Source: an uncultured Bacteroidales bacterium
GTDB lineage: Bacteria > Bacteroidota > Bacteroidia > Bacteroidales > Paludibacteraceae
Direction: 5' to 3'
Assembly: GCA_902785605.1 (NCBI GenBank)
Contig: CACZZL010000022.1
Coordinates: 1-39,768, forward strand
Length of the DNA stretch: 39,768 nt
Under the pieces are notes generated by a model. The model worked only from the letters and a program-made list of their open reading frames with translations, was not told the origin of the DNA and did not search any database. Below are positions 1,100-38,639 of the stretch, piece after piece. The position numbers were made by a program, and so were the translations under genes. Position 1 is the stretch's first letter. Each line of letters opens with the position of its first letter.

Positions 1100-2224
1100 T
1101 TATTTTAGATTCTTCTCAAAGAACTCCGCCAACTTGTCCCACGGAATCATATTCTTGGGTTCGCCTTTGCCGGCCGGCTCGGTATATCCGCCATCATAGA
1201 GATCGCAATGCGAAGCGTCCGGAATGATGAGCAGCTCTTTGTTCTCGGGACAGGGATTCGGAGCGACCACGGTTTTGTAGCCGTCTGCTTTGCCGTCCAC
1301 CATGTAATGGTACGCCGCTTCGCCGAAATAACGGCTGTGGGCGTCCGCGCCGTGCATAATCAGAACAGCAGAACGAATCTCGTTGATGTAATACAGGAAA
1401 CGGCTGTTGGCATAAGCCTGCGTGCCGATGACACGCCAACCGTCATTCGAGTTGCCGGAACGGGCGTGATAACCACGGGCGGTCTTGTAGTAATCGTAGT
1501 AGTCCTTGACGAACTGCGGTGCGTCGTCCGGCAGTGGGTCTATCACGCCTCCTGCCATAGCAGCAGGGGCTGCAAGACGTTGTGCGGCGAGTGCCACACG
1601 CGCTTCGTGACGCGCCTCTTCGGTGTCAGCGGAATCGAAATAACCGTTACCGCTGACACGCGTCATGTCGTACATCGTGGAAGCCACCGTCGCTTTGATG
1701 CGTGTATCTGCTGCAGCCGCATTGAGTGCTATTCCTCCCCAGCCGCATATACCGATGATGCCAATTCTATCAGCATCCACTTCCGGCAGTTTGCTTAGAT
1801 AATCCACCGCTGCCATGAAGTCCTCGGTATTGATATCCGGTGACGCAGTACGACGCGGTTCACCCGAACTCTCGCCGGTAAAAGAAGGATCAAAAGCCAA
1901 TGCAACAAATCCGCGCTCTGCCATTTTCATTGCATACAGACCTGAACTCTGCTCTTTGGTTGCGCCGAAAGGACCAGACACGGCTAAAGCGGCGTATTTG
2001 TGATTTGACATTTGAGATTTGTCATTTGCCTTCGGCGTGTAGAGATCAGCCACCAAGGTGAAGCCGTACTGGGTCTCGAAGGATACCTTCTTATGATTTA
2101 CTTTCTCACTAAGCGGGAACACTTTGTCCCATGTGTCATTTTCACAATTATTCATTTTGTCATTTGAATTTGTGCAAGCAGCAAAGGTAATGGCTGCAAG
2201 CATTAGGGTGAAAAACTTTCTCAT
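1100..2224 (-). CDS. Alpha/beta-hydrolase (dienelactone hydrolase-like) lipoprotein
   Basis: This 374-aa protein has a lipoprotein signal peptide (lipobox ...TFAAC, Cys17) and an alpha/beta-hydrolase fold. The nucleophile elbow is GICGWGG with Cys160 in the nucleophile position, as in dienelactone hydrolases. The probable acid is Asp294 (HGADAH) and the probable base His339 (DASHCDL). It is expected to hydrolyse a small ester or lactone at the cell envelope; the substrate is unknown. Its ATG shares one base with the stop of the upstream CMD-cupin gene (TAATG), which indicates translational coupling. Residues about 65-77 (KANDKSQMSNHKY) and the stretch just after the lipobox are encoded by 7-nt-period repeats and look like inserted loops. 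Confidence 0.85.
   Translation of the reverse strand: MRKFFTLMLAAITFAACTNSNDKMNNCENDTWDKVFPLSEKVNHKKVSFETQYGFTLVADLYTPKANDKSQMSNHKYAALAVSGPFGATKEQSSGLYAMKMAERGFVALAFDPSFTGESSGEPRRTASPDINTEDFMAAVDYLSKLPEVDADRIGIIGICGWGGIALNAAAADTRIKATVASTMYDMTRVSGNGYFDSADTEEARHEARVALAAQRLAAPAAMAGGVIDPLPDDAPQFVKDYYDYYKTARGYHARSGNSNDGWRVIGTQAYANSRFLYYINEIRSAVLIMHGADAHSRYFGEAAYHYMVDGKADGYKTVVAPNPCPENKELLIIPDASHCDLYDGGYTEPAGKGEPKNMIPWDKLAEFFEKNLK
1996..2030. repeat. Heptamer repeat inside the hydrolase gene
   Basis: Five consecutive heptads of the form ATTTGNN (ATTTGTG, ATTTGAC, ATTTGAG, ATTTGTC, ATTTGCC). They lie in frame and encode a surface-loop-like stretch at about residues 65-77 of the hydrolase. Confidence 0.9.
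2153..2173. repeat. Short heptamer-like repeat just after the lipobox of the hydrolase
   Basis: Three degenerate heptads (CATTTTG, TCATTTG, AATTTGT) resemble the ATTTGNN set at 1996-2030. They encode about residues 17-24, the tether that follows the lipidated cysteine. Confidence 0.5.
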
Positions 2225-3348
2225 TATTGTACGGTATTATATTGTGTGTCATTAACGGGTTCGAGCCATTCGTTCGTGGCGTCCGGTTGCTCTTGGGTGT
2301 GAATCGCCAAGTGCTGCATCCACGAGTCCTCCGCGGCTCCATGCCAGTGTTTGACGCCTTCGGGAATAGCAATCACGGTTCCCGGAGTAAGCGGAACTGC
2401 GGGTTTGTTCCACTCCTGATACCAACCCTTGCCGCTCACGCAGATCAGCACTTGTACCGCTCCGTGGTGAACATGCCAGTTATTGCGGCAACGCGGCTCG
2501 AACGTCACATTCGCTACACCGTCAAAATACGGTTGCAGAAAACTCTGTCCCACGAAATACTGCGCGTAAGCAGAGTTGGGCGAGCCCTGCGGCCAGGGAG
2601 AGTTGAGAGTTGAATGTTGAGAGTTGAGAGAAGTTGGCAAGTTTGAAGTTGACAGTTCATCATAAGCTTTCGCTAAGCGTCCGGCTTCGTTCAAAAGGCC
2701 ATTTGCCGCGAGAGCAACTACGATACCTTGTAACTGCTCTTCGCTCACACCCATATTGCGTGCGCCGGCGATGTGTGCTTTCAGTTGCGGCTCCACACCT
2801 TCGAGACCGCTCAACGCAGAGACGGTCACCAACTCGCGGTCGGCGTACGTCAGGTTATCACGGGCAAAAATATCCCCGAACAAATGCGCCTTCAGGTAAT
2901 AATCCGTCGCTTCCGCAAACTCATACTCAAAAGCCTTGCCGACCAGTTGCGTCTGCACGCGCGTACCTTCTTTAAGTGCATCGTAGTCATCGCTGAGCGG
3001 ACTTGCATCCTCGCCCATAATAACCTTCACGCCTTTCGCCTGACGATCTCCTATGACGCGCTGCAAAACACCCAGCGCATTCAGACTCCGCGGAAAACCC
3101 GTATAAGCATACAGTTGCGAGAGCGCTTCCTTGATCTGGCTAACCGTCAACTCGGCCTCCAACCCGTTATGAATAGCCGACTCCAGTGCCACCAAATCGC
3201 CCTTAGCCTCATCGCAAGCGATAGCACTCATCCACGCTGCCTGTTCGGTACTAAACGAAAGCTCATTCATATCTTTTGTTTCTGTCTTATGCTTTGGACT
3301 GCATGCAACCAGCAAAGCTGCCAAAGCAAGGGTCATGAATTTTCTCAT
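2224..3348 (-). CDS. Carboxymuconolactone decarboxylase-cupin fusion lipoprotein
   Basis: This 374-aa protein has a lipobox ending LLVAC (Cys16). Two carboxymuconolactone decarboxylase / AhpD-like helical repeats follow: about residues 35-105 (IKEALSQLYAYTGFPRSLNAL) and 145-225 (DRELVTVSALSGLEGVEPQLK). A cupin domain lies at about 275-355, with metal ligands in NWHVHHGAVQ and EGVKHWHG. Such CMD-cupin fusions occur beside flavodoxins and hydrolases in Bacteroidota, and an oxidoreductive or ring-opening role on small molecules is plausible. The usual AhpD CxxC pair is not seen, so peroxidase activity is doubtful. Its ATG overlaps the upstream flavodoxin stop (ATGA). The linker at about 232-250 is encoded by a heptamer repeat. 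Confidence 0.85.
   Translation of the reverse strand: MRKFMTLALAALLVACSPKHKTETKDMNELSFSTEQAAWMSAIACDEAKGDLVALESAIHNGLEAELTVSQIKEALSQLYAYTGFPRSLNALGVLQRVIGDRQAKGVKVIMGEDASPLSDDYDALKEGTRVQTQLVGKAFEYEFAEATDYYLKAHLFGDIFARDNLTYADRELVTVSALSGLEGVEPQLKAHIAGARNMGVSEEQLQGIVVALAANGLLNEAGRLAKAYDELSTSNLPTSLNSQHSTLNSPWPQGSPNSAYAQYFVGQSFLQPYFDGVANVTFEPRCRNNWHVHHGAVQVLICVSGKGWYQEWNKPAVPLTPGTVIAIPEGVKHWHGAAEDSWMQHLAIHTQEQPDATNEWLEPVNDTQYNTVQ
2598..2653. repeat. Heptamer repeat encoding the CMD-cupin linker
   Basis: Eight consecutive 7-nt units: GAGAGTT, GAGAGTT, GAATGTT, GAGAGTT, GAGAGAA, then the more divergent GTTGGCA, AGTTTGA and AGTTGAC. On the coding strand they give the S/N/T/L-rich linker between the second CMD repeat and the cupin domain. 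Confidence 0.9.
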
Positions 3349-7736: not shown

Positions 7737-9044
7737 ATGTTTGATAATTTATCAGAACGATTAGAACGAAGCTTCAAGATTCTCAAGGGTGAGGGTCGAA
7801 TAACTGAGATTAATATTGCGGAGACCGTGAAGGATATCCGCAAAGCCTTGTTAGAGGCGGATGTCAACTATAAGACCGCGAAACAGTTCACGGACCAGGT
7901 GAAAGAGAAAGCGCTGGGTCAGAACGTGATGACGAGTGTGCGTCCCGGTCAGTTGATGGTCAAGATCACGCACGATGAGTTGGCTGCGTTGATGGGCGGT
8001 GAGGCGCAGGAGATCAACCTGAAAGGTAATCCGGCAATCATTTTGATGTCGGGTCTTCAAGGTAGTGGTAAAACCACTTTCGCCAGCAAGTTAGCCAATT
8101 ATCTGCAGACCAAGAAGGGCAAGAAAGTGATGCTCGTGGCGTGTGATGTGTATCGTCCGGCGGCTATTGAGCAGTTGCGTGTGCTGGGAGAGCAGATTAA
8201 TGCCAAGGTGTATACGGGCGAAGGCGAATCGAATCCTGTGAAGAAAGCGCAGGCAGCGATTGACGAGGCGAAGCGATTCGGTTACGATGTGGTGATTGTC
8301 GATACGGCAGGTCGTCTGGCAGTTGACGAACAGATGATGCAGGAGATTGCCGCTATCAAAGAGGCGATTAATCCGTCCGAGACCCTGTTCGTAGTGGATG
8401 CGATGACCGGTCAGGACGCGGTTAATACGGCCAAGGAGTTCAACGACCGTTTGGATTTTGACGGCGTGGTACTGACCAAGTTGGACGGTGATGCCCGTGG
8501 CGGTGCGGCTTTGAGTATTCGTTCGGTGGTGAATAAGCCGATTAAGTTCATCGGTACGGGTGAGAAGATGGAGGCGCTGGATGTGTTCCATCCTGCCCGT
8601 ATGGCGGATCGTATCCTCGGAATGGGTGACGTGGTGAGCCTTGTGGAGCGTGCGCAAGAGCAGTACGATGAGGCAGAGGCACGTCGAATCAGCAAGAAGA
8701 TCGCCAAGAACCAATTCGATTTTAACGATTTTATCGGTCAGTTGAACCAGATCAAGAAGATGGGTTCGATGAAAGAGTTGATGGGTATGATCCCGGGCAT
8801 GGACAAAGCGCTGAAGGATGTGGAGATCAGCGACGATGCGTTCAAGCCGATTGAGGCGATGATCAATTCGATGACTCCGGCCGAGCGTGCTAATCCGAGT
8901 CTGCTGAACGGCAGCCGCAAAGCGCGTATTGCCAAAGGTGCAGGTGTGGATATTGTGGCGCTGAATCGTTTCCTCAAGCAATTCGAGCAGACCTCGAAGA
9001 TGATGAAGAAAGTGCAGCAGATGGGGAATAGCCGGAGGCGGTAA
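7737..9044 (+). CDS. ffh: Signal recognition particle protein Ffh (SRP54)
   Basis: This 435-aa protein has all Ffh domains. The N-terminal helical bundle covers about 1-90. The GTPase NG domain has a P-loop GLQGSGKTTFASKLA near 105-120, CDVYRPAAIEQL, DTAGRL, and TKLDGDARGGAALS followed by GTGEK. The Met-rich M domain starts near 295 (QLNQIKKMGSMKELMGMIPGM) and ends with the basic MGNSRRR. Ffh binds signal sequences emerging from the ribosome together with 4.5S RNA and docks with FtsY to deliver membrane proteins. Length is normal. It heads a six-gene plus-strand operon and is preceded by a consensus promoter. Confidence 0.98.
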   Translation: MFDNLSERLERSFKILKGEGRITEINIAETVKDIRKALLEADVNYKTAKQFTDQVKEKALGQNVMTSVRPGQLMVKITHDELAALMGGEAQEINLKGNPAIILMSGLQGSGKTTFASKLANYLQTKKGKKVMLVACDVYRPAAIEQLRVLGEQINAKVYTGEGESNPVKKAQAAIDEAKRFGYDVVIVDTAGRLAVDEQMMQEIAAIKEAINPSETLFVVDAMTGQDAVNTAKEFNDRLDFDGVVLTKLDGDARGGAALSIRSVVNKPIKFIGTGEKMEALDVFHPARMADRILGMGDVVSLVERAQEQYDEAEARRISKKIAKNQFDFNDFIGQLNQIKKMGSMKELMGMIPGMDKALKDVEISDDAFKPIEAMINSMTPAERANPSLLNGSRKARIAKGAGVDIVALNRFLKQFEQTSKMMKKVQQMGNSRRR

Positions 9045-9067
9045 AGGTTAAGGGTTATAGTTTAGTG
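9042..9067. repeat. Heptamer repeat between ffh and the next gene
   Basis: TAAAGGT, TAAGGGT, TATAGTT, TAGTG: degenerate 7-nt units that begin with the ffh stop codon and end on the GTG start of the next gene. They fill the whole intergenic gap. Confidence 0.65.
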
Positions 9068-9637
9068 TCCGAAGAAAAGACATATCAACCGAAGTGGGAG
9101 AAACACGTTGAGTATCAGCGGAGTAAACACCATCATCACCATCATCGCGAAGATGGTGGGTGTAACCGTAGTTCGGAGCCGGATAAGTATACCAATAAGA
9201 TGGGCGGTGCGCTGCGTATGAAAGACAAGAGCGCGTATTACGGGCTGATGGTTATCATTGTGGCTGTGGCGTTGTTCGGCGCGTATAAACTGGTGAAGAT
9301 GGCTGTGCACGAGATTCGTCAGATGCCGTTGGATGATCCGGCAACGGAGCGGAGTGTGGATGAGTTGCGTATTCACAAAGTGGATGAGAAGAACGCGTTG
9401 TTGCTGGGTGACAGTTTGGCGCAGGCGTTTCAGGTTGACTCGTCAATGATCCATCGTGTGCAGATTGAGACTCGCCCTGTGTATCGTCCGCCGAGAAAGG
9501 AGAATAAATGGTATATCACCAAACGCGAATGGAAAGCGATTTGGCGCAATCTGAAGGTATGGCGCTGGGAGAAACGCCGTGAGCGTGAAGAAGCAGAAGC
9601 CGCAAAAAACGCTGAGAAAGAGAAAGATAACGAATGA
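9065..9637 (+). CDS. Single-pass membrane protein of unknown function with natural His6
   Basis: This protein of about 190 aa starts most likely at GTG 9065; an in-frame ATG exists only near residue 46. I do not recognise a family. The N-terminal segment is hydrophilic and contains six consecutive histidines (residues 22-27, SKHHHHHHRED). A single transmembrane helix follows at about 58-77 (YYGLMVIIVAVALFGAYKLV). After it comes a segment of about 70 residues, then a very basic and acidic C-terminal region (RREREEAEAAKNAEKEKDNE) likely to be helical. The stop overlaps the folD ATG (ATGA), so it is part of the ffh operon. A metal-related role for the His run is possible but unsupported by anything else. 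Confidence 0.75.
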   Translation: MSEEKTYQPKWEKHVEYQRSKHHHHHHREDGGCNRSSEPDKYTNKMGGALRMKDKSAYYGLMVIIVAVALFGAYKLVKMAVHEIRQMPLDDPATERSVDELRIHKVDEKNALLLGDSLAQAFQVDSSMIHRVQIETRPVYRPPRKENKWYITKREWKAIWRNLKVWRWEKRREREEAEAAKNAEKEKDNE

Positions 9638-10539
9638 TTTTAGACGGAAAACAAATAGCAGCACAGATCCGTGGCGAATTGCGTGAGCAAGTGCAAGCGC
9701 TGTTGGCTTCGGGTCAACGTGCACCGAAACTGGCTGTGGTGATTGTGGGGCATAACCCTGCGAGTGAGACCTATGTGAACAACAAGATCAAGGCGTGCGC
9801 GGAAGTGGGCATTGAGGCGGAGAAGATTGCGTACGAGGAGTACATCACCGAACAGGCTTTGCTCACGGAGGTGCGTCGGTTGAACAGCGACGAGACGATT
9901 GACGGGTTCATTGTGCAGTTGCCGCTGCCGGCTCATATCAGCGAATCGAGTGTGCTGAGTGCGATTGATTATCGCAAGGATGTGGATGGCTTGACTCCGC
10001 AGAGCATGGGACGTGTTATTCAGGGTCTGGATGCGTTCATTAGCGCGACGCCGAAGGGTATTCGGGAATTGCTGGCGCGTTATAAGATTCAGACGGAAGG
10101 CAAGCATGTGGTGGTCATCGGTCGCTCGAATATCGTCGGCAAACCGATGGCGATGCTGCTGATGCAACGTCCGTACCTGAGTCTGCCGAATATGAGTGCA
10201 TCGTCGTTAGGCGATGCGACGGTGACGGTGTGTCACAGCAAGACGCGGGATCTGAAGTCGATTTGTCTGACCGCCGATATCCTCATTGTGGCAGCCGGAA
10301 GTCCGAAGTTGCTGACGGCGGATATGGTCAAAGAAGGTGCGACGGTGATTGATGTGGGAATCAACCGAGTAGATGATCCTACTACTCCGAAGGGTTATCG
10401 TTTGGTGGGCGATGTGGATTTTGAACACGTGGCACCGAAGGCGGCGTATATCACGCCTGTTCCCGGAGGAGTAGGACCTATGACGATTGTGAGTCTGTTA
10501 CAAAATACGTTACAAGCATACAATGAACATACTCGATAA
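9634..10539 (+). CDS. folD: Methylenetetrahydrofolate dehydrogenase/cyclohydrolase FolD
   Basis: This 301-aa bifunctional enzyme oxidises 5,10-methylene-THF to methenyl-THF and hydrolyses that to 10-formyl-THF. Family signatures are clear: VGHNPASETYVNNKIKAC with the catalytic-region Lys, DGFIVQLPLPAHI, DYRKDVDGLTPQS, VVVIGRSNIVGKPMAMLL (NADP-binding) and TPVPGGVGPMTIVSLLQNT at the C-terminus. Length is slightly above the usual 280-290, owing to a short insert after the NADP loop (PYLSLPNMSASS). It starts inside the stop of the preceding gene (ATGA) and its last 17 bases overlap prfA. Confidence 0.98.
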   Translation: MILDGKQIAAQIRGELREQVQALLASGQRAPKLAVVIVGHNPASETYVNNKIKACAEVGIEAEKIAYEEYITEQALLTEVRRLNSDETIDGFIVQLPLPAHISESSVLSAIDYRKDVDGLTPQSMGRVIQGLDAFISATPKGIRELLARYKIQTEGKHVVVIGRSNIVGKPMAMLLMQRPYLSLPNMSASSLGDATVTVCHSKTRDLKSICLTADILIVAAGSPKLLTADMVKEGATVIDVGINRVDDPTTPKGYRLVGDVDFEHVAPKAAYITPVPGGVGPMTIVSLLQNTLQAYNEHTR

Positions 10540-11623
10540 GATAGATGGCTTGGAGGCCAAGTTCCATGAGGTTTCGTTACTCATTACCGATCCGGCGGTG
10601 ATTGCTGACCAGGCACGCTATGTGCGTCTAAATCGCGATTACCATGACTTGGAGCGTGTGCTGGAGTGCGCTCATCGGTATAAGAAAGCGGTGACGGACT
10701 TGCAGGACGCGAAGGATTTGTTCTACAACGAGTCCGATCCGGAGATGAAGGAGATGGCAAAGGCGGAGATGGAGGAGCTGGAACCGCAGATTCCGAAGTT
10801 GGAGGAAGAGTTGAAGTTGCAGCTGCTGCCGCAAGATCCGGAAGACGGTAAGAACGTGGTGATGGAGATCCGTGGCGGTACGGGAGGTGACGAGGCGGCT
10901 ATTTTTGCCGGAGACCTGTTCCGTATGTACTGTAAGTACTTTGAGATCAAGGGATTTAAGTACACCGTGTCGTCGTTCACCGAAGGTGCGGCAGGCGGAT
11001 ACAAGGAGATTATTTTCAATGTGACCGGTCAGAATGTGTACGGTACGCTCAAGTACGAGAGTGGTGTTCACCGTGTACAGCGTGTTCCGGTGACCGAGAC
11101 GCAAGGACGTGTACATACCTCGGCTGCGACGGTCGCTGTGTTGCCCGAGGCGGATGAGTTCGAGGTGCATATCAATGAGGGGGAGATTAAATGGGAGACG
11201 TTTCGGTCAGGCGGTGCCGGCGGTCAGAACGTGAACAAGGTCGAATCGGGTGTGCGGTTGCGTTATAACTGGAAGAATCCTAATACGGGTGAAGTGCAGG
11301 AGATACTGATTGAGTGTACCGAGACGCGCGACCAGCCGAAGAACAAAGAGCGCGCGCTTTCGCGTTTGCGTACGCAAATCTACGACAAGGAGCACCAGAA
11401 GTATATTGACGACATCGCTGCACGAAGGAAGACGATGGTCTCGACGGGCGATCGGTCTGCGAAGATACGTACGTACAATTATCCGCAGGGTCGTATCACC
11501 GATCACCGTATCGGATACACGGTATATAACCTGGCGGCGTTCATGGACGGCGATATACAGGGAGTGATCGATGCGTTGCAAGTAGCCGAGAACGCAGAGC
11601 GATTGAAAGAGAGCGAGTTATAA
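10523..11623 (+). CDS. prfA: Peptide chain release factor 1
   Basis: This 366-aa class I release factor has the hydrolysis motif in RSGGAGGQNVNKVES. The region corresponding to the RF1 PxT recognition motif reads RVPVTETQGRVHTSA (P-V-T rather than the P-A-T of E. coli), and it is not the RF2 type (SPF). RF1 reads UAA and UAG and releases the nascent chain. The N-terminal helical domain (about 1-100) and the C-terminal basic tail (QIYDKEHQKYIDDIAARRK onward) are full length. The 17-bp overlap with folD suggests coupled translation. Confidence 0.97.
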   Translation: MNILDKIDGLEAKFHEVSLLITDPAVIADQARYVRLNRDYHDLERVLECAHRYKKAVTDLQDAKDLFYNESDPEMKEMAKAEMEELEPQIPKLEEELKLQLLPQDPEDGKNVVMEIRGGTGGDEAAIFAGDLFRMYCKYFEIKGFKYTVSSFTEGAAGGYKEIIFNVTGQNVYGTLKYESGVHRVQRVPVTETQGRVHTSAATVAVLPEADEFEVHINEGEIKWETFRSGGAGGQNVNKVESGVRLRYNWKNPNTGEVQEILIECTETRDQPKNKERALSRLRTQIYDKEHQKYIDDIAARRKTMVSTGDRSAKIRTYNYPQGRITDHRIGYTVYNLAAFMDGDIQGVIDALQVAENAERLKESEL

Positions 11624-11649
11624 AGGCGAAAGGCGAATGGTTATAGGCT
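11622..11649. repeat. Heptamer repeat between prfA and rsmE
   Basis: AAAGGCG, AAAGGCG, AATGGTT, ATAGGCT: four 7-nt units that begin in the prfA stop codon and run to the base before the rsmE ATG region. They fill the intergenic gap exactly. Confidence 0.85.
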
Positions 11650-14484: not shown

Positions 14485-14485
14485 G

Positions 14486-14513
14486 GGTTACGGGTTACAG
14501 GTTATAGGTTATG
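14486..14513. repeat. Heptamer repeat carrying the GSCFA start codon
   Basis: GGTTACG, GGTTACA, GGTTATA, GGTTATG: four perfect-period units. The ATG start (14511-14513) is the end of the last unit. Confidence 0.9.
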
Positions 14514-15344: not shown

Positions 15345-15375
15345 CCTTTAGCCTTTCACCATTAGCCTTTCAAAG
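15341..15375. repeat. Heptamer repeat containing both convergent stop codons
   Basis: TTAGCCT, TTAGCCT, TTCACCA, TTAGCCT, TTCAAAG. The TAG stop of the GSCFA gene (15342-15344) and the TAA stop of valS (complement of 15362-15364) lie in different copies of the same unit. Confidence 0.9.
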
Positions 15376-17983: not shown

Positions 17984-18018
17984 GAATTAAAAATTAAAAA
18001 TTACAAATTAAAAATTGC
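17984..18018. repeat. Heptamer repeat in the valS leader
   Basis: GAATTAA, AAATTAA, AAATTAC, AAATTAA, AAATTGC: five units immediately before the valS start. They are the same sequence class as at 36138-36172 upstream of engB. Confidence 0.9.
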
Positions 18019-20640: not shown

Positions 20641-20655
20641 GAACACTTTTGATTC

Positions 20656-25551: not shown

Positions 25552-28169
25552 TTGCCTCCCACAAGGCGTTTTATCTCTGACAGTTTATTGAGCGCCTCCA
25601 GAGGCGTTAAGTTGTTGATATCGAGTGCTGTTACCTCATCGCGAATCTGCTCGAGCACGGGGTCGTCGAGTTGGAAGAAACTGAGTTGCATGCCTTCGCG
25701 TGTCTCGCCCAGATGGGCTCTGGCGTTCGTGTTGGCAGCGGTATTGGCGGAGCCTTCCAGGTCTGCGAGGATCTGGTTGGCACGCTCCACGATGGAGGCG
25801 GGCATGCCGGCTAACTTGGCCACGTGAATACCGAAACTGTGCTCCGAGCCGCCGCGTACCAGTTTGCGCAGGAAAATGACCTTGCCGTTCACTTCGCGTA
25901 CGGATACGTTGTAGTTGCGGATTCGGTCGAAGGTCTTCTCCATCTCGTTGAGCTCGTGATAGTGCGTCGCGAAGAGGGTCTTGGCGTGTCCTTTGTTCTC
26001 GTGGATATACTCGACGATGGCCCAAGCGATCGAGATACCGTCGTAGGTGCTTGTGCCGCGCCCAAGTTCGTCGAACAGCACGAGGCTGCGTTCGGAGAGG
26101 TTGTTAAGGATCGAAGCGGCTTCGTTCATCTCGACCATGAAAGTCGATTCGCCGAGCGATATGTTATCCGACGCGCCGACACGCGTGAAGATCTTGTCCA
26201 CGATACCGATGGACGCGCTCTCGGCGGGTACGAACGAACCCATTTGGGCCATGAGCACAATGAGTGCTGTTTGGCGGAGTAGGGCGGATTTACCGGCCAT
26301 GTTCGGACCCGTGATGATGATGATCTGCTGCCCGTTGTTGTCCAGCAGCACGTCGTTGGCGATGTACTGTTCGCCGGGAGGCAGCTGTTGTTCGATGACC
26401 GGGTGACGACCCTGACGGATATCGATGACGAGGCTGTCGTTGATGTCCGGGCAGATGTAACGATGCTCAGCAGCGACGGTGGCAAACGAGAGCAGACAAT
26501 CGAGTTGTGCGAGCACGTTCGCGTCCAGTTGCATCTGCGGCACCCATTCGCTGAGGGCGAGCATCAGTTCCTGATAGAGTCGGTTCTCGATGATCTGGAT
26601 ACGCTCTTCGGCGGTTGTTATCTTCTCTTCGTACTGTTTGAGTTCGTCGGTGATGTAACGCTCTGCGTTGACCAGTGTCTGCTTGCGAATCCACTCCGGC
26701 GGCACTTGTTCTTTGTAGGTGTTGCGCACCTCGAGATAGTAGCCGAAGACGTTGTTGTAACCTATCTTAAGGCTTGTGATGCCGGTACGCTCTATCTCGC
26801 GTTGCTGAATCTGCAGCAGGTAATCCTTACCGTCCGATTGGATCGCGCGCAGTTCGTCCAGTTCGGTGTCCACGCCTCGTGCGATGATGTTGGGTCGGCC
26901 CTGTGCCAAAGGCGGGTCGGGTACGATCTCGCGTTCAATACGCGTGCGCATCTCCGAACACGGGTCCAGTTGTTCGCCAAGCAGGTTAAGGTACGCGTTG
27001 GTGTTGGCGCCGGAGCAAATCTCTTTGATGGGTCTGACCGCGCGTAGCGCACGTCCGAGTTGCACCATCTCACGCGGGCCGATTCGACCGGTGGAGATCT
27101 TGCTTACGATACGCTCGAGGTCACCGACCTGTTGTAGCGCCTCGCGGATGGTCTCCCGCGCCTCGGGGTTTTTGAACAGGAACTCCACGACCGTCTGGCG
27201 GTTGCGGATGCGGCGTGCGTCCTTGAGCGGGAACGCGATCCAGCGGTGTAACATACGTCCGCCCATCGGTGTGATCGTGCGGTCGATGATATCAAACAGC
27301 GTGCGGCTCTCTTCCGTCTGTCCGCCGATCAGTTCCAGATTGCGGATCGTGAAGCGGTCGAGCCAGACGTATTGGTCTTCCTCGATGCGGCTAAGGTGCT
27401 GTATATGGCCTGTCTGCAAGTGTTGCGTCATGTCGAGGTACATGAGAATACCTCCCGCTGCCGTCACACCTGCCGGCATCTTCTCCAGACCGAAGCCTTT
27501 CAGGGACGATACGCCCCACAGTTTCTGCAAACGTTCGCGGGCTGTCGATTCGACGAGCATCCAATCTTCAAGTTCGAAGGTAAAGAACTTGGAGCCGAAC
27601 AGGTTCTCCAGGTCCGCTTTGCGTCCGCGGAGATGCAGCACCTCTTTGGGCGCGAAGTTGGTCAGCAGTTTGTCGATATAGTCGCTGTTGCCTTGTCCGG
27701 CAAGGAACTCACCGGTCGAGATATCAAGGAATGCGACGCCAATGATATGTTTGTCAAAATGGATACAGGCTACCCAGTTGTTCTCTTTCTGGGTGAGGGT
27801 GGTGTCGGAGTAACTGACACCGGGGGTGACAAGCTCGGTGACACCGCGCTTCACCAGTTTCTTGGTCAGTTTGGGATCCTCCAGTTGGTCGCAGATGGCT
27901 ACGCGCAGACCTGCGCGCACCAACTTGGGCAGATAGGTATCGAGTGCATGGAACGGGAAACCCGCCATCTCGAGAGGTTGTGCAGCGGAACTGCCGCCGT
28001 TGGAACGGTGGGTGAGGGTAATGTTCAGGATTTTGCTTGCGCGCACGGCGTCCTCGGCGTAGGTCTCGTAGAAGTCGCCGCAACGAAACAGCAGCATCGC
28101 GTCGGGATACTGCGTCTTGATGTCGCGGAACTGCTTCATCATCGGAGTCAACTCAATTTTATTTTCCAT
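25548..28169 (-). CDS. mutS: DNA mismatch repair protein MutS
   Basis: This 873-aa protein has the mismatch-binding F-x-E motif in [12 protein letters not shown] (about residues 27-38) and connector, core and clamp domains. The ATPase has Walker [19 protein letters not shown], the signature [16 protein letters not shown], and Walker [21 protein letters not shown] with the His of [11 protein letters not shown]. MutS recognises base mismatches and small loops and recruits MutL. Full length for MutS1. Directly upstream is a heptamer repeat and then the S23-like gene. I see no separate promoter between them, so mutS may be read from the promoter at 28629-28660. Confidence 0.98.
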
Positions 28170-28173: not shown

Positions 28174-28236
28174 TTGATAGTTGAAAGTTGATAGTTGAAA
28201 GTTGAAAGAAGTCGTCTAGTTGATAGTTATAAGTTG
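28174..28236. repeat. Heptamer repeat between mutS and the S23-like gene
   Basis: TTGATAG, TTGAAAG, TTGATAG, TTGAAAG, TTGAAAG, then degenerate AAGTCGT, CTAGTTG, ATAGTTA, TAAGTTG: nine 7-nt units. They fill the gap and encode the last residues (I-N-L-stop) of the S23-like protein. Confidence 0.9.
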
Positions 28237-28957: not shown

Positions 28958-28962
28958 AAAGT

Positions 28963-33057: not shown

Positions 33058-35535
33058 TTACCGCAGATCGACGGTGACCTTGAGGTTGTATCGCCTGCCG
33101 GTTAGGTAGTTAGGCGAAGCCCATTGTTGACCATAGGCGTCGGCTACCCAGAAATAGGAGTTGACGTTCCGCCAGCCGATGAGGTTGAACACCTCAAACT
33201 GGATCGCCCACTGTTTGACGTGCTTGGCGCTCGGTTGCCGCATAAACTTAGCCGTCTGGGCGTTGAACACGTAGGTCGCGCCGAGGTCGATGCGCTTGTA
33301 GGTCGGCATGCGTCCCCAGGATTGGTTATTGCGCGGTGCGTAATAGGGTTGTCCTTCCGAGAACTGCATTTTGAGGTGGAACTTGAGTTGCGGCAGTTGG
33401 GGCAGGTAGTCCTGGAAGAGCATGGAGAAGTTCCAGCGCTGCTCCGTAGGGCTGGGAATCCAAGGGGATGGGTTACCGGTTATGGGTGATGGGTTACAGG
33501 TTCGTTGTCTGGCTGTCATGGTGGAGAAAGAGATCCAGGAGTCGGCTCCAGGGACCAGTTCGCCGTAGAGTTTGAGGTCAAGTCCTGCTGCGTAGCCTTC
33601 CGAATCGTTCTTACCGGAATAGCGTACGCGCACGTTGTCCACGGTGTAACTCTCCAAGCGGTCAATGTACTTATAGTAGCCCTCAACGGTGAATTTGAAC
33701 GGTCGTCCCCATGCTCGGAAGTAATAATCGCTGCCGAGCACGACATGTACGGAGCGCTGCGCCTTGAGGTTGCGGTTGAGTTGGATACGTGTCACGCCGA
33801 GTGCGTCGGTTACGGTGTCGCGCAGTTCCTTGTAGAACGGGGCTTGGTAATAGAGACCGGTAGCCAAGCGGAAGCAGACATCGCGTTTCCAGCCCGGAAT
33901 CCATTCGACAGACGCACGAGGGGAGGGGAGCACTTCGTTGTTCCATGACCACCATTGGAGTCGTCCGCCTACAGTGAGAATCCATTGTCCGGACTCGGTA
34001 TGCCATTTATGCTCGTTCTGGATGTAGCCCTGAACGCGTGCGGAGGCCATCGAACTGTCACCGCGCATGGCGTAGTACAGTTCCATTGTGTGACCGTTGT
34101 CGGGCAGCGAATAACCGGCACTGTCGCGCCATTCCCATTCGGATATATGGTCACGGATGAGTTCCGCCTGTCCGCTCACACCCCATCGGAGTGTGTTGTC
34201 CCCGCGTTTCCATGAACCGTTGTGCGCGAGTGTGATAACCCCTGCCTCGAGGCTGTTGCGGGCATGCTGGTGGAACAGACCGGTGCCTAGCACCTCCGCT
34301 TGTCCGTCGGTCGGGTTAATCTGCTCCGTGCTCACGTTCCCTGTCGCACTTTGGTTGTTACCGTTTGTAAGAACGTACTGACCGGTAATGTCAAAGTTCT
34401 CTCGCTCGTTGGTGTAGAAACCGGAGAGATCGAAACCGAGTTCTACTTCCTTGCTTACATGCCCCTTCGCACTCAAGGCTGCGAAGGCGGTGAGGAACTT
34501 GTCTTTCTCCTGTCCATCGTAGTAGATGGCCAGATGCTTGGCGTTCTGTCCGCCGAAGGACTCAGAGAGCGAGTCGGGCGTGAAGCGGTAGTCGTTCTGG
34601 CTGACGTTGCCCAAGAAGGACATGGTCCATGTGGAAGCTACCTTCCACGTGATATAGGTCTGATAATCAATGTAAGTCGGTTGGTAGTTGCCGGCCGTGG
34701 AGAGACCTCCGAGCATGTATTTGGATGTCTTGTAGCGCAGTCCGTGCATCATTGACCAAGTGCTGTCACCGTGTCCGACATAGACCTGCGCGCCCAGTAG
34801 GCTGGCGCTGAGGCTGGCCTCGAAATGGTCAGGACGTTTGTATTGGATATCGAGCACAGAGGCCATCTTGTCACCATACTGCGCACCGTATCCGCCAGCC
34901 GAGAAATGGACGTTCTCCACCATCTCGGGGTTGACGAAGGAGAGTCCTTCCTGTTGTCCGGACCGAATGAGCAGCGGACGGTGTACCTCGATGCCGTTGA
35001 CATAGACCGAGTTCTCGTCAAACGAGCCGCCACGGACGTTGTATTGGGAACTGAGTTCGTTGGTCTGACTAACACCGGCGAAGGTGATCAGCAGGCTCTC
35101 GATAGAACCGCCTGTAGCGTCCGGCATAATACGCGTGGCGGTGGCATCTATCTGATCCATTGTACCTTGCGTGTGCCGAATGCCTCGCACCTCAATTTCT
35201 GTCAGCAGTTGCTCATCCGTGAGCATTTGAACGTTGATATTGATCACATCGTGCAGGTCCAGAATACGCTGCTGTACGGAGGTGTAACCGATCATGGAGA
35301 AGTTGAGCACGACTGTGTCTGCTTCCTCCAGTACCAGTTCGTAATAACCGTTTTTGTTGGTCGCTGTGCCGAAAGGCGGGTTGGAATTGACCACCGCCAC
35401 ATTCGCTAACTCGATACCCACATTGTCCTGATCTACGACATAGCCGTAGATACGCGCTGTGCGGGCGAGTGCTTCGCTCGGAATAAGGAATAAGGAGCAA
35501 AGAACAAGGACTAATATGTATCTTTCAACTTTCAA
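33058..35535 (-). CDS. TonB-dependent receptor with carboxypeptidase-like N-terminal domain
   Basis: This 825-aa protein is read from TTG 35535, which overlaps the engB stop as TTGA and gives the signal peptide [20 protein letters not shown], cleaved near EALA. No ATG is available before the mature region. A CarboxypepD_reg-like domain (about 25-100: [40 protein letters not shown]) precedes the plug (about 115-235: [40 protein letters not shown]). A 22-strand-type barrel follows, ending [10 protein letters not shown]. It imports a ligand across the outer membrane; no SusD partner is adjacent, so the ligand is unknown. Heptamer repeats encode the signal-peptide core and a loop at about 677-690. 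Confidence 0.88.
33463..33504. repeat. In-frame heptamer repeat in the TonB receptor barrel
   Basis: AGGGGAT, GGGTTAC, CGGTTAT, GGGTGAT, GGGTTAC, AGGTTCG: six units (42 nt, frame-neutral). They encode a Pro/Ser/Asn-rich loop ([12 protein letters not shown]). Confidence 0.9.
35481..35515. repeat. Heptamer repeat encoding the TonB receptor signal-peptide core
   Basis: GAATAAG, GAATAAG, GAGCAAA, GAACAAG, GACTAAT: five units. On the coding strand they give the hydrophobic stretch [12 protein letters not shown]. Confidence 0.85.
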
Positions 35536-35550
35536 CTCTCGACTTTCAGT
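35523..35550. repeat. Heptamer repeat over the engB stop / TonB receptor start
   Basis: TTTCAAC, TTTCAAC, TCTCGAC, TTTCAGT: four units. They contain the engB stop (complement of 35532-35534) and the TTG start of the receptor gene. Confidence 0.85.
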
Positions 35551-36137
35551 TGGGCATTTATGCCCTCGATATAGTTGGTTAATTCTTCTCCGCCGAGTCC
35601 TGTTTCGGAAGAGGTGACGAACACAGGCGGCAGTTCTTCCCATTCTTCCAGCAACCGGTTCTTGTATGCCTCTACGTTCTCCTTAAGACGCATGCGACCG
35701 AGTTTGTCTCCCTTGGTGAAGACGATCGCGAACGGCACACCGTTCTCGCCGAGCCAGTTGATGAACTCGAGGTCTATCTTCTGCGGCTCGTGGCGGCAAT
35801 CAATGAGCACGAACAAACAAATGAGTTGCTCGCGCAGCAGGCAGTACCGTTCGATCATTCGTTTGAGCGCCTCGCGTTGTTTCTGTCCTGCTTGTGCATA
35901 ACCGTATCCGGGCAGATCGACCAGATGCCATTCCCCGTTAATCAGGAAATGGTTGATCAACAAGGTTTTGCCGGGCTTCTGGCTGGTTTTCGCCAGTTTG
36001 GGATTGTGGCACAGCATGTTGATGAGGGATGATTTTCCCACATTACTGCGTCCGATGAACGCGTATTCAGGCAGCGTGCTCTGCGGACAGGATGCTACAT
36101 CCGGATTAGAGATGATATAGGAAGCGGACTTTATCAC
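35532..36137 (-). CDS. engB: Ribosome biogenesis GTPase EngB (YsxC)
   Basis: This 201-aa TrmE-Era-EngA-EngB-Septin GTPase has G1 [14 protein letters not shown] (about 28-41), G2 region [16 protein letters not shown]3 [10 protein letters not shown]4 FTKGDKL and G5 [10 protein letters not shown], all intact. It assists late assembly of the 50S subunit. The start is GTG 36137 ([14 protein letters not shown]); the N-terminus aligns with the family, and upstream is a heptamer repeat. The last residues (LKVES) lie in another heptamer repeat. It is 23 bp after cstA and overlaps the TonB receptor start. Confidence 0.96.
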
Positions 36138-36172
36138 AATTACGAATTAAAAATTAAAAATTAAGAATTACG
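36138..36172. repeat. Heptamer repeat between cstA and engB
   Basis: AATTACG, AATTAAA, AATTAAA, AATTAAG, AATTACG: five units that encode the last residues and stop of CstA and end at the GTG start of engB. Confidence 0.9.
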
Positions 36173-37660
36173 TTTGCTTGCCCAGAACATAAAGCCGCAG
36201 AGGCAGCACAATGTGATCACGCCGGCAACAGCATAACCGATCCAGCGCAGTTCATGTGCGAGGTTGATGCCTTCTTCGGCAATGAAGATATAACTGCTGC
36301 AGACCATGGTCATGAATAGGGCAGGAATGAGTGCAATGAGGTAACCGTAACGGTAGGAACCGTTCTTGAACAGCCAGATCGTACCGGCCCAAAGCGTGAA
36401 GACGGCGAGTGTCTGGTTTGTCCATGCGAAATAACGCCAAACAACCTCAAAATCAACGAATACCATTCCGAATACGCACAGGAACAGCGGAACAGCGATC
36501 ACCAGACGCTTCGGTATCGGACGTTGATCCAGATGCAGGAAATCCGCCACGATGAGTCGTGCTGAACGAAGGGCCGTATCACCGCTGGTGATCGGTGCGG
36601 CAATGACTCCGATGATGGCCAATATACCGCCTACGGTGCCCAGCCAGTTGCGGCTGATGACATCTATTACAAATGCAGGAGTATTGGGTTTGGGCATTTC
36701 CGGCGTTTTGAGACTGGCGGCATATTCTTGCAGACCTGCTATACCGTCCACGCCCGCTTCCGGATTGGCGAAGAACGTACCTGCAGCAGCTGCCCAGATA
36801 AGCGCCAGAATACCTTCGGCTACCATGGCTCCGTAGAAGATCCAGCGTCCTTGGCGTTCGTTGGTACAGCAGCGCGACATGATCGGGCTCTGTGTGCCGT
36901 GGAAACCGGAGATGGCACCACAGGCAATGCTGACAAACATCATCGGGAATAACGGGTAGTCTTTGTTGTGGCGATTTGCCAAGCCGTCAAACACTTCCGG
37001 CATCTCGCTGCTGTGCCAGCCAAGCATAATGACCATGATACCGATACCCATGAACAGCAACATCGCACCGAAGATAGGGTAGAAACGACCGATCAGTTTA
37101 TCGACAGGCAGGACAGTTGCCAGCGCGTAGTAGGCGAAGATGATGAGTACCCACACGATAGGAATCGTGCTGCTGCCCCACGAGAGAGTTGCGAAAGCAT
37201 GCATTTTCTGCAGCAGAGCTGCCGGACCGCTCAAGAAGGTCGTAGTGAGCAGAATGAGCAGCACCAGCGACAGAATGAGCATAAACACCTTGACTCCTTT
37301 GCCGAGTTCGTCACCGATAATCTGCGGCAGGGAAATACCGCCTTTGCGGATGGACATCATTCCGCTCAGGTAATCGTGTACACCTCCGGCGAAGATGGTG
37401 CCGAACACAATCCACAGGAAAGCGGCAGGGCCGTAGAAGATACCCATGATCGCACCGAAGATAGGACCCAGGCCGGCGATATTGAGGAACTGAACGAGGA
37501 AGATACGCCACGGAGACATCGGAACAAAGTCCACACCGTCTGTTTTGGTCAACGCCGGCGTCTTACGATCCGGCTCCACTCCGAACACTTTCTCTACCAA
37601 AATGCCGTAGGTAAAAAATCCCACTACCAGCAGCACTAACGCAATAATAAAAGTAATCAT
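36161..37660 (-). CDS. cstA: Carbon starvation protein CstA (short form)
   Basis: This 499-aa membrane protein has the CstA blocks VDFVPMSPWRIFLVQFLNIA, LGPIFGAIMGIFYGP, GGVHDYLSGMMSIRKGG, CGAISGFHGTQSPIMSRC and ITSGDTALRSARLIVADFL. It has about 13 membrane helices. It is shorter than the E. coli protein of about 700 aa but normal for Bacteroidota. CstA proteins take up peptides and/or pyruvate; the substrate is not settled for this form. It has its own promoter 26 bp upstream and a heptamer repeat at its 3' end. Confidence 0.93.
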   Translation of the reverse strand: MITFIIALVLLVVGFFTYGILVEKVFGVEPDRKTPALTKTDGVDFVPMSPWRIFLVQFLNIAGLGPIFGAIMGIFYGPAAFLWIVFGTIFAGGVHDYLSGMMSIRKGGISLPQIIGDELGKGVKVFMLILSLVLLILLTTTFLSGPAALLQKMHAFATLSWGSSTIPIVWVLIIFAYYALATVLPVDKLIGRFYPIFGAMLLFMGIGIMVIMLGWHSSEMPEVFDGLANRHNKDYPLFPMMFVSIACGAISGFHGTQSPIMSRCCTNERQGRWIFYGAMVAEGILALIWAAAAGTFFANPEAGVDGIAGLQEYAASLKTPEMPKPNTPAFVIDVISRNWLGTVGGILAIIGVIAAPITSGDTALRSARLIVADFLHLDQRPIPKRLVIAVPLFLCVFGMVFVDFEVVWRYFAWTNQTLAVFTLWAGTIWLFKNGSYRYGYLIALIPALFMTMVCSSYIFIAEEGINLAHELRWIGYAVAGVITLCCLCGFMFWASKRNS

Positions 37661-37845: not shown

Positions 37846-37876
37846 TCAATGTTGCTCTCTTTTTCAAAAGCGGGTG

Positions 37877-37908
37877 CAAAGGTACTGCTTTTTTTTGATA
37901 TGACCAAA
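37877..37908 (-). promoter_or_regulatory. tRNA-Val promoter
   Basis: Minus strand: TTTG (37905-37908), 20 nt, TACCTTTG (37877-37884). Nearly the same sequence as the tRNA-Ser promoter. Confidence 0.85.
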
Positions 37909-37937
37909 TTTTTTAGCAAAAAAATGCACATTTACCC

Positions 37938-38639
37938 TCATTTTTTTTGAAAAAGGCGATAATTGTACCATTTTTGGTCTTCAAAACGGACAAATACAAC
38001 ATAACATAGAAGGGTGATACCAATACCGACGATGGTGCCGCCGAAGACATCTCTTGCGAAATGTTGGCTGAGGTAGATGCGGCTGTAACCACCGAGTGCG
38101 GCTGCTGCAAAAAGCAGCAACTGGAGAAGATAACTAGTCGTCCTAGGGTACCTAGAATTCCTAGGATTCCTAGTCAATAGAATACAAACCACAAAAGCCA
38201 AGGCAAAGAAGGAGGTCGTATGTCCGGAAGGGAAAGAGTACCAATAGTTCATTTTAACCCCCTCTACCAACGGCAGTTGGGTATCCGGCATAAACAAATC
38301 AAACCAGGATAGCGGCCGTGGTGCGTTGAAGATATGTTTAAAGAGTTGTGTGCTGAGTGCAGAGAGTAGCATAGCAGCACTGGCAAATGCACCGTCACCG
38401 ATGCGACCGAAGAGGAGTAGGGCAACGCAGATGACGTAAGGGAACCATTCGGCTACGTGCGTGTAATACCTAAAAAATATATCACGCGCGTGCGTGTGAT
38501 GATCGCACAGCAGCAGATGTAATTCTCCCTGTGGAATATACAAAAGGGCTAAGCCCAATACTGCAAGCAGTACCAGGCTTAGTCCGATAAAGACGCTGTT
38601 GTTACGCAGTAGATTTGTGTTACTCAACCCGTTGTCCAT
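37938..38639 (-). CDS. PAP2-family membrane phosphatase
   Basis: This 233-aa protein starts at MDNGLSNTNLLRNN (38639); a start three codons earlier is equally possible. It has about six membrane helices. The three phosphatase motifs are complete: KHIFNAPRP (K-x6-RP), YSFPSGHTTS (PSGH) and YSRIYLSQHFARD (SR-x5-H-x3-D). It is probably an undecaprenyl-pyrophosphate or lipid phosphatase at the periplasmic face. It overlaps the 3' end of the PKD-protein gene by about 20 bp. A 9-nt-period repeat encodes the loop TRNPRNSRYPRTT between two helices. Confidence 0.88.
   Translation of the reverse strand: MDNGLSNTNLLRNNSVFIGLSLVLLAVLGLALLYIPQGELHLLLCDHHTHARDIFFRYYTHVAEWFPYVICVALLLFGRIGDGAFASAAMLLSALSTQLFKHIFNAPRPLSWFDLFMPDTQLPLVEGVKMNYWYSFPSGHTTSFFALAFVVCILLTRNPRNSRYPRTTSYLLQLLLFAAAALGGYSRIYLSQHFARDVFGGTIVGIGITLLCYVVFVRFEDQKWYNYRLFQKK
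38133..38177. repeat. 9-nt tandem repeat in the PAP2 gene
   Basis: ACTAGTCGT, CCTAGGGTA, CCTAGAATT, CCTAGGATT, CCTAGTCAA: five 9-nt units. They are frame-neutral and encode a basic loop of x-P-R / N-S-R triplets. Confidence 0.85.

What the first reader, a model, noticed from the sequence alone, without database searches (positions are those of the whole stretch)
1996..38177. Dispersed short tandem repeats that share a 7-nt period but not a sequence
At least 15 loci hold degenerate tandem arrays of heptamers (1996, 2153, 2598, 9042, 11622, 14486, 14894, 15341, 17984, 19345, 28174, 29401, 33463, 35481, 35523, 36138); one more has a 9-nt period (38133). Unit sequences fall into classes: GTTGAAA-like, GGTTACG-like, AATTAAA-like, ATTTGNN, TTAGCCT, AAAGGCG. 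The constant feature is the period, not the motif. They fill intergenic gaps, cover start and stop codons, and lie in frame inside at least six genes. Cyanobacterial STRR heptanucleotide repeats are the nearest known parallel. A shared mechanism, such as template slippage or a 7-nt-stepping enzyme, is inference.
Basis: partly seen in the sequence, partly recalled or inferred. Interest (0 to 1): 0.85.

Follow-up and report, generated by a model that had tools for sequence, protein, structure and literature searches.

The report
Seven-letter DNA repeats that keep changing
A gut bacterium and its relatives carry many very short DNA arrays that repeat every seven letters, sit between genes and inside protein loops, and differ in sequence at the same spot from species to species; repeats of this length are known in other bacteria, but why seven letters is favoured is not understood.

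Summary
Of the 16 heptad loci listed, 13 are far above chance, one (9042) is marginal and two (2153, 29401) are not heptads. In 400 kb of the same genome, lag-7 runs of at least 9 number 71, against 12 at lag 8, 1 at lag 10 and about 1 expected. Genus relatives show the same, unevenly. At orthologous sites arrays are absent or carry other units; inside genes 167 of 173 net length differences are multiples of three. 180 units share a loose consensus T[T/G]A[A/C]N[A/G]N. Array length is rarely a clean multiple of seven; 2-6 extra bases are nearly always present. On the consensus strand arrays tend to start at two purines, with a freer end. Unrelated sites share 26-34-nt stretches with the same variant unit in place. 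Best reading: short dispersed insertions made by microhomology-primed copying from other arrays, plus slippage; the enzyme is unknown and a local-seed test was negative. Kind: tandem heptanucleotide repeats (STRR, long simple sequence repeats); a new variant of a known kind.

The parts
1996..2028 (.). ATTTGNN array inside ORF 1100..2224 (-), hydrolase-like
   Evidence: lag-7 score 16; TRF; ORF; weak family matches below cut-off
2598..2657 (.). GAGAGTT / AGTTGAA array inside ORF 2224..3348 (-), about residues 230-250, between the PcaC-like (144-214) and mandelonitrile-lyase-like (260-371) parts
   Evidence: lag-7 score 18 over 2598-2630; TRF to 2657; family limits
9042..9064 (.). weak GGTTA-like array filling the gap between ffh (7737..9044) and ORF 9065..9637
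   Evidence: lag-7 score 8, p 0.003: marginal
11622..11640 (.). AAAGGCG array over the stop codon of prfA (release factor 1, 10523..11623)
   Evidence: lag-7 score 10; L016 has AATTCAC units at the orthologous junction
14482..14512 (.). GGTTACG-type array filling the gap between the FtsX-like ORF 13252..14484 and the GSCFA ORF 14511..15344
   Evidence: lag-7 score 18; families
14893..14927 (.). TGAAGGG / GGTTACA array in frame inside the GSCFA ORF
   Evidence: lag-7 score 18
15341..15370 (.). TTAGCCT array between the 3' ends of the GSCFA ORF and valS
   Evidence: lag-7 score 11
17985..18016 (.). AATTAAA array just upstream of valS (15362..17977, -)
   Evidence: lag-7 score 21
19347..19380 (.). 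14-nt double unit AACGGTTATCGGTG, C-terminal part of the CotH-domain ORF 19267..20646 (-)
   Evidence: lag 7 = 13, lag 14 = 19; CotH covers residues 76-395 only
28174..28208 (.). TTGAAAG array 5 nt from the start of mutS (25548..28169, -)
   Evidence: lag-7 score 22; other units or no array at the 5' end of mutS in genus relatives
33471..33502 (.). GGTTACC-type array in frame inside the RagA/SusC-like ORF 33058..35643 (-)
   Evidence: lag-7 score 13; not found by TRF
35480..35514 (.). GGAATAA array near the N-terminus of the RagA/SusC-like ORF
   Evidence: lag-7 score 20, running on into the next array; L136 has AAATTGA units near this site
35522..35547 (.). CTTTCAA array at the boundary of a small-GTPase ORF (35532..36137, -; EngB-like by my inference) and the RagA-like ORF
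   Evidence: lag-7 score 13; MMR_HSR1 match
36138..36170 (.). AATTAAA / AATTACG array between the GTG start of the GTPase ORF and the stop of the CstA-like ORF 36161..37660 (-)
   Evidence: lag-7 score 20; TCACTTT units in L140 at the same junction

Best explanation
The arrays are short dispersed insertions, mostly 16-60 nt. They keep arriving at, and being lost from, places where extra DNA does little harm: gene junctions and protein loops. Proposed mechanism: a free DNA 3' end that finishes in two purines pairs by at least 2 nt with an existing array, or an array-bearing module, elsewhere in the genome. It is extended for a few units, realigning by one 7-nt unit, and rejoins. Slippage inside arrays then changes copy number. 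Period 7 and the loose consensus T[T/G]A[A/C]N[A/G]N persist because arrays are made from arrays. Shown: period, consensus, phased start with a freer end, remainder of 2-6 nt, frame selection, differences at orthologous sites, shared variant order. Inferred: the copying in trans, the priming and the direction. Unknown: the polymerase, and why the first arrays had 7 nt.
For: Lag-7 excess in the own genome, in G035 (74 arrays with a run of at least 10, against 9 at lag 8 and 3 at lag 10 in 359 kb) and in single stretches from 40 genomes of the genus, G035 among them (54 against 13 and 7 in 750 kb). Same site, different unit: at the 5' junction of mutS, starting in the upstream stop codon, GATTTAG, AATTTGA, AATTGAA, AATTAAA and GACAATG in five species, and no array in others. 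49 of 339 ortholog pairs at array sites hold a lag-7 run of at least 9, against 0-4 at lags 5, 6 and 8-13; shifted controls 15 of 1,802, not matched for gene junctions. Unit consensus 4.55 bits against 3.59 +- 0.06 shuffled. Length mod 7 is 0 or 1 in 7% of 141 arrays, against 79% of 1,197 detected implants of pure n x 7 arrays. Start at purine-purine-pyrimidine in 61 of 143 against 24.1 expected, p 4e-13; 33 of 87 against 15.6 without AATT arrays. 5' phase non-random in coding (p 4e-4) and other non-coding arrays (p 3e-5); 3' phase not (p 0.23, 0.34). Pairs sharing at least 26 nt with a variant unit in place: 44 against 20.0 +- 4.7, max 35 of 100 shuffles, with unrelated flanks in 5 of the 6 groups printed.
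Against: No donor-to-target event was observed; there are no strain pairs. The variant-order excess is about twofold and leans on the common AATTAAA class. The CCTTTCA pair in L193 has longer flank homology, so copying may involve larger modules. Arrays outside the training set fit the consensus less well (15 valS-locus arrays +0.8 +- 0.39 bits; 31 other Bacteroidales +0.76 +- 0.34; training +2.28). Direction is not clean: the opposite strand also shows RRY starts (29 against 16.4), arrays after a stop codon have p 0.058 for the 5' and 0.079 for the 3' phase, and the pooled 3' phase is somewhat uneven (30, 21, 14, 20, 9, 23, 25 of 142). Period 8 and 11 arrays exist too. No enzyme found: no RT (PF00078) and no Y1 transposase (PF01797) in the own draft genome.
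Confidence: 0.42

Rival explanations
1. In-place replication slippage with a preferred 7-nt step: a local 7-mer flanked by at least 2 nt of microhomology is duplicated again and again, the step being set by the polymerase's contact length (the proposal of Mrazek 2007, seen only through citing papers).
For: A remainder of 2-6 nt is what slippage between short direct repeats would leave. One clean case, L154 10288-10314, is net +21 against 19 orthologs. 4-copy arrays (net +21 if local) are over-represented in coding against intergenic arrays, p 0.014, but p 0.18 if 2-copy arrays are counted. Proposal cited in PMC4679880 and PMC4692102 (passages).
Against: Array-less orthologs do not hold a seed copy of the unit: best match 5.23 of 7 against 4.96 (other units) and 5.16 (shuffled) at 30 sites (weak power, loops diverge). 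Modal net lengths at coding sites with at least 3 agreeing orthologs are mostly not multiples of 7 (27, 39, 30, 36, 24, 9; once 21), though flank alignment there is loose. Shared consensus and shared variant order need a further cause.
Confidence: 0.28
2. A dedicated templated enzyme that adds 7-nt units, telomerase-like, with one or several RNA or DNA templates of the shared consensus.
For: Phased start, freer 3' end, remainder of 2-6 nt, common consensus, sharp period.
Against: No reverse transcriptase domain in the own genome (draft, 83.5% complete). Many unit classes within one genome (40 among 75 arrays) would need many templates.
Confidence: 0.12
3. Functional sites: the arrays are kept by selection as binding or translation-initiation elements.
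For: Many noncoding arrays abut gene ends: within 12 nt of 65 of 106 3' ends and 51 of 96 5' ends.
Against: About half lie inside ORFs (77 of 161), with no orientation preference there (56 same, 50 opposite, 3 unclear), and sites differ between species.
Confidence: 0.07
4. Old arrays inherited at each site and kept regular by gene conversion (concerted evolution).
For: The mutS 5' junction has arrays at exactly the same place in five species; orthologous units are a little closer (distance mostly 2-3) than random pairs (3-4).
Against: 290 of 339 orthologous pairs hold no lag-7 run of at least 9; array-less sites are scattered among relatives.
Confidence: 0.09
5. Assembly artefact or chance.
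For: The window's genome is a draft and most named near relatives are metagenome assemblies.
Against: Chance excluded. The closed genome of the isolate Prevotella communis E15-14 has 88 overlapping matches to AATTGANAATTGANAATTGA against 6 for the reversed pattern; Bacteroides stercorirosoris DSM 26884 has 56 against 0.
Confidence: 0.02

Closest known systems
STRR, short tandemly repeated repetitive heptanucleotides of filamentous cyanobacteria (e.g. three families in Calothrix PCC 7601)
   Same: 7-nt unit, several unit families in one genome
   Different: Here many more unit families with a loose common consensus, short arrays, many in frame inside genes, different units at the same orthologous site. 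STRR details are from a passage of PMC4692102 and from recall.
Long simple sequence repeats (LSSR) with heptanucleotide excess, Mrazek, Guo and Shah 2007
   Same: Heptanucleotides the most abundant of the 5-11-nt units in most genomes; polymerase-contact slippage was proposed
   Different: That work concerned long repeats; these arrays are short and degenerate (mostly 2-8 copies). The paper itself was not held; known from PMC4679880 passages.
TAACTGA direct repeats of Beggiatoaceae, cyanobacteria and five Bacteroidetes (PMC4679880, passages)
   Same: Heptamer arrays near start codons; two sets in Paludibacter propionicigenes (same family as the window's relatives, recalled). One of the 87 arrays in G035 (L194 13030-13054) has this very unit.
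   Different: One fixed heptamer there, with one-base neighbours rarely repeated in the main genome studied. Here a cloud of units.
GGGNATC-type heptads of Xanthomonas and Nostoc (PMC4692102, passages)
   Same: Intergenic heptads, mostly between the same genes in two Xanthomonas, with length and sequence variation
   Different: G-rich, quadruplex-forming unit; ours are mostly A-rich.
Rickettsia palindromic elements (recalled)
   Same: In-frame insertions inside protein-coding genes
   Different: Those are palindromic and over 100 nt (recalled), not heptad arrays.

Membership tests
Tandem heptanucleotide repeats (LSSR/STRR kind) | head-to-tail 7-nt units above chance | tested here: met
Tandem heptanucleotide repeats (LSSR/STRR kind) | 7 nt preferred over neighbouring unit lengths | tested here: met
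   71 against 12 (lag 6), 12 (lag 8), 1 (lag 10) in 400 kb
Tandem heptanucleotide repeats (LSSR/STRR kind) | several unit families in one genome, dispersed | tested here: met
   40 necklace classes among 75 arrays in 440 kb
Cyanobacterial STRR proper | the published STRR heptamer sequences, in heterocystous cyanobacteria | not tested
   nearest named relatives are Bacteroidales; the published unit sequences were not in hand
TAACTGA repeats | one fixed unit TAACTGA, neighbours not repeated | tested here: not met
   0 of 75 own-genome arrays and 1 of 87 in G035 have this unit; many neighbouring units are repeated
Phase-variable contingency repeats | copy-number change between cells switches a gene | not testable with these tools
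   no strain or read data; 167 of 173 coding length differences between species are multiples of 3
IS200/IS605-type or RAYT-driven repeats | Y1 transposase in the genome | tested here: not met
   no PF01797 match in G000 (draft, 83.5% complete); 18 of 61 genus genomes over the cut-off
Retroelement or telomerase-like system | reverse transcriptase domain | tested here: not met
   no PF00078 match in G000 (draft, 83.5% complete); not searched in relatives

The most novel reading that the evidence does not exclude
Bacteroidales of this kind have an unrecognised DNA-synthesis activity that starts at a purine dinucleotide and adds 7-nt units from a template, which may itself be another array, placing arrays of about 30 nt across the genome. 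That would make bacterial heptad repeats (STRR, LSSR) the product of a copying reaction rather than of local slippage.
Probability: 0.2. Interest if true: 0.9.

Novelty: new variant of a known kind. Interest (0 to 1): 0.6.

Why it matters
Why heptanucleotides dominate among longer-unit bacterial repeats has been open since 2007 (as cited in PMC4679880 and PMC4692102). This genus offers dozens of related genomes with orthologous filled, refilled and empty sites, and arrays that carry their own signature (start phase, remainder, variant order), so slippage, copying and a dedicated enzyme can be told apart. It also shows such DNA placed in frame in protein loops, a source of fast protein-length change. 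Arrays of one class occur in Prevotella, Bacteroides and Parabacteroides isolates, so laboratory tests are possible.

Tried and rejected
Local seed test: negative, weak power. Y1 transposase and reverse transcriptase as drivers: none in the own genome. Loss of SbcD (hairpin nuclease): SbcD above cut-off in 10 of 61 genus genomes and 43 of 119 order genomes, the window's own genome counted in both and negative. Array density 16 in 402 kb (several stretches from each of 10 SbcD-bearing genomes) against 52 in 670 kb (one stretch from each of 36 lacking it), p 0.017; but density also falls with distance from the window's species (38 in 362 kb for mutS identity >= 75%, 16 in 388 kb below), and SbcD-bearing G049 has 10 arrays in 60 kb: not supported. 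Draft genomes may miss SbcD. Genome-specific unit repertoire: not supported (within-genome near pairs 860 against permuted mean 825, max 874 of 100). Orientation to genes: none in coding; codirectional 44 same, 27 opposite, 1 unclear. Inverted array pairs in the window's genus: rare (4 neighbouring pairs among 267 arrays). Habitat: 27 arrays in 619 kb (35 loci that I took for ruminant or herbivore) against 4 in 619 kb (32 others). I sorted these by record title; several titles name no host, a horse bin sits among the others, and MAG status, lineage and habitat are confounded, so this is a lead only. One search printed too much and was cut; one search replaced it with stricter limits. Gene context rests on my own simple ORF caller.

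Papers: PMC4679880 and PMC4692102, passages only; PMC4060949, passages only, nothing on the point; Mrazek 2007 not held. Searches for heptanucleotide or heptamer repeats with Bacteroidetes, Bacteroidales, or Bacteroides and Prevotella gave one paper; five literal array strings gave none. My statement that this is not in print for the group rests on those four searches of one open-licence library.
Full report
What the window is. The window is contig 22 (39,768 bases) of a 2.08 Mb draft genome in 28 contigs, 83.5% complete. The 13 closest named valS loci, 93-73% identical in protein, are Bacteroidales and Paludibacteraceae assemblies, several from ruminants by title. Its genes are ordinary: ffh, prfA, valS, mutS, a RagA/SusC-like ORF, a CstA-like ORF and others, and two tRNA genes.

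Observation. I scored each listed locus with an ungapped lag-7 score against Markov-2 sequence. Thirteen of 16 are far above chance, 9042 is marginal, 2153 is not periodic, and 29401 is a 14-nt repeat without lag-7 signal. In 400 kb of the same genome, runs of at least 9 matches number 71 at lag 7, 63 at lag 14 and 48 at lag 21, against 12, 12, 1, 13 and 2 at lags 6, 8, 10, 11 and 13 and about 1 in a Markov-2 control. Lags 9 and 12 have 21 and 12, which codon structure may explain. Plain autocorrelation hardly shows it (0.2522 at lag 7, 0.2509 at lag 4, 0.2486 at lag 8). Seventy-five arrays were called in 440 kb.

Spread. G035, another species of the genus, has 74 lag-7 arrays (run of at least 10) in 359 kb against 9 at lag 8, 3 at lag 10 and 10 at lag 11. 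One stretch each from 40 genomes of the genus (G035 among them) gives 54 in 750 kb, against 13 at lag 8, 7 at lag 10, 0 at lag 5 and 32 at lag 11. Density is uneven: 14 of the 40 stretches have none at that threshold. Further away it falls: 31 in 1.24 Mb of 67 other named loci, 3 in 400 kb of 20 genomes of the class and 3 in 390 kb of 20 genomes of the phylum. The class is not an assembly artefact: pattern AATTGANAATTGANAATTGA has 88 overlapping matches in the closed genome of Prevotella communis E15-14 (reversed control 6), 56 in Bacteroides stercorirosoris DSM 26884 (0), 18 in Parabacteroides goldsteinii (0), 3 in Phocaeicola vulgatus (0), and none in the other 5 of 9 genomes searched.

Same site, other unit. 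With 250-nt flanks, 47 of 93 array sites in the genus set have an ortholog aligned on both sides. In 49 of 339 ortholog pairs the site holds a lag-7 run of at least 9; at lags 5, 6 and 8-13 it is 0-4. Sites shifted by 600-900 nt give 15 of 1,802, but they are not matched for gene junctions. Between the upstream stop codon and the start of mutS, five species have arrays of GATTTAG, AATTTGA, AATTGAA, AATTAAA and GACAATG units, each starting in the stop codon's last two bases, while others have no array. The window's own mutS array has TTGAAAG units, but its upstream neighbour was not shown to be the same gene. Inside genes the same loop holds different arrays, hairpin-like inserts or nothing.

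Frame. Of 161 arrays, my simple ORF caller puts 77 inside ORFs, 51 at ORF edges and 33 between. Of 173 ortholog pairs at coding sites where the other species has no array, 167 net differences are multiples of three; pairs share sites, so this is fewer independent events than it seems. A peak at 4 copies in coding (29, against 13 with 3 and 4 with 5) is suggestive only (p 0.014 against intergenic arrays; 0.18 with 2-copy arrays included). Noncoding arrays hug gene ends: within 12 nt of 65 of 106 3' ends and 51 of 96 5' ends.

The motif is loose, not absent. Expectation-maximisation over rotations and strands of 180 units gave T[T/G]A[A/C]N[A/G]N with 4.55 bits; letter-shuffled units gave 3.59 +- 0.06, maximum 3.68 of 15, with fewer restarts than the real set. 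Arrays not used for training fit it less strongly. Identical unit necklaces occur in 3.1% of own-genome pairs, 3.9% within G035 and 1.95% between them, against 0.45-0.65% for shuffled units; near-identical pairs are not more frequent within than between genomes (860 against permuted mean 825, max 874).

Two structural signatures. First, array length modulo 7 is 0 or 1 in 7% of 141 arrays; pure n x 7 arrays implanted in the same DNA give 79% (1,197 detected of 1,500). A partial unit of 2-6 nt is nearly always present, as any process that needs at least 2 nt of pairing would leave. Second, read on the consensus strand, arrays start at purine-purine-pyrimidine in 61 of 143 cases against 24.1 expected; without AATT arrays 33 of 87 against 15.6. 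The start phase is non-random in coding and other noncoding arrays (p 4e-4, 3e-5); the end phase is not (p 0.23, 0.34); for arrays after a stop codon the values are 0.058 and 0.079. Implants show a flat start phase. The opposite strand also shows some excess (29 against 16.4), so I do not call the direction proven.

Sharing between unrelated sites. Forty-four array pairs share at least 26 nt including a variant unit in the same place, against 20.0 +- 4.7 (maximum 35 of 100) when units are shuffled inside arrays; at 30 nt it is 11 against 4.5 (maximum 10). Examples: one 34-nt string at two places of the own genome, of which 32 nt also in G035; one 30-nt TAATGAA string at three places of G035. 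In 5 of the 6 groups printed the flanks differ; one pair in L193 shares longer flanking sequence, so array-bearing modules may move as wholes.

Mechanism. Local slippage predicts a seed copy in empty orthologs; I found none (5.23 matches of 7 against 4.96 with units of other arrays and 5.16 with shuffled units, 30 sites), with weak power because loops diverge fast. Slippage also does not by itself explain shared variants. I therefore prefer short insertions made by microhomology-primed copying from other arrays, followed by slippage and strong sorting by selection for frame and position. That the copying runs in trans, its priming and the enzyme are inference. A dedicated 7-nt-adding enzyme is not excluded. 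The own draft genome has no reverse transcriptase domain and no Y1 transposase, and loss of SbcD does not clearly track array density.

Known kind. Tandem heptanucleotide repeats are known: STRR in cyanobacteria, heptads as the most abundant 5-11-nt long repeats in most genomes with a proposed 7-nt polymerase contact (Mrazek 2007, seen only through PMC4679880 passages), TAACTGA repeats in Beggiatoaceae, cyanobacteria and five Bacteroidetes (PMC4679880 passages; one G035 array has this unit), GGGNATC in Xanthomonas and cyanobacteria (PMC4692102 passages). What I did not find in print for this group is the cloud of related units, their exchange at orthologous sites, the in-frame insertions and the start-and-remainder signature. 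Hence: new variant of a known kind, interest 0.6.

Noticed in passing
L135, L138, L140, L141, L146, L148, L149, L151, near the RagA/SusC-like gene: A second repeat class of about 11 nt (e.g. TTATCGGAGTC in L140, by eye) lies between boxes like GTTTACTATTTTTAAGATT and TGTACGATTTTTAAGATT (8 of 9 loci looked at). Lag-11 arrays are the second most frequent non-triplet period below 14 in the genus sample (32 in 750 kb) and mostly intergenic (44 of 69). No TTTAAGATT box in the window itself.
   Followed up: partly
L148, L140, L143, L149, L154: Hairpin-like inserts with constant edges TTTGAGC ... GCGGTC(TTT) and changing palindromes, often joined to GTCTTTC heptads, also in frame inside genes. L148 has 8 of the 21 genus pattern hits; some of the 21 look like chance hits in coding sequence, as do the 5 own-genome hits.
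   Followed up: partly
L265-L276 (Bacteroides stercorirosoris DSM 26884): AATTGAC arrays form inverted pairs about 26-86 nt apart around a core such as GGCTGCGC...TGCATAG, some nested inside TTTAGCGG hairpins: 10 of 12 places fetched, of which five were picked because the pair was visible in the hit list. Looks like a miniature element with heptad ends.
   Followed up: partly
window 38141-38173; L005 valS 3' junction: Period-9 CCTAGG-rich repeat; related CCTAGG/ACTAGG strings at a valS junction in L005. Palindromic, separate from the heptads.
   Followed up: no
window 29403-29435: 14-nt unit whose halves CCTA/TAGG are complementary (CCTATTTTAGG); not a heptad array.
   Followed up: no
window 28962-29016: TTGACCAAC and AACTTGGTC repeats facing each other, an inverted repeat in a large intergenic gap.
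   Followed up: no
window 23609-23662, 37860-37914 and many places in L115-L134: Dispersed AAAAAAGCAGTACCTTTGCA-type sequence, 18-mers with up to 15 copies in 440 kb; reads like the Bacteroidetes -33/-7 promoter (recalled), beside tRNA genes in the window.
   Followed up: no
L119 10275-10330 and L133 8561-8616: Same 24-nt core between AAAGTTG heptads at two places of the own genome; it holds AGATCGGAAGA, which resembles a sequencing adapter (recalled), so contamination should be checked.
   Followed up: no
genus and order genomes: SbcD above the family cut-off in only 10 of 61 genus genomes and 43 of 119 order genomes.
   Followed up: partly
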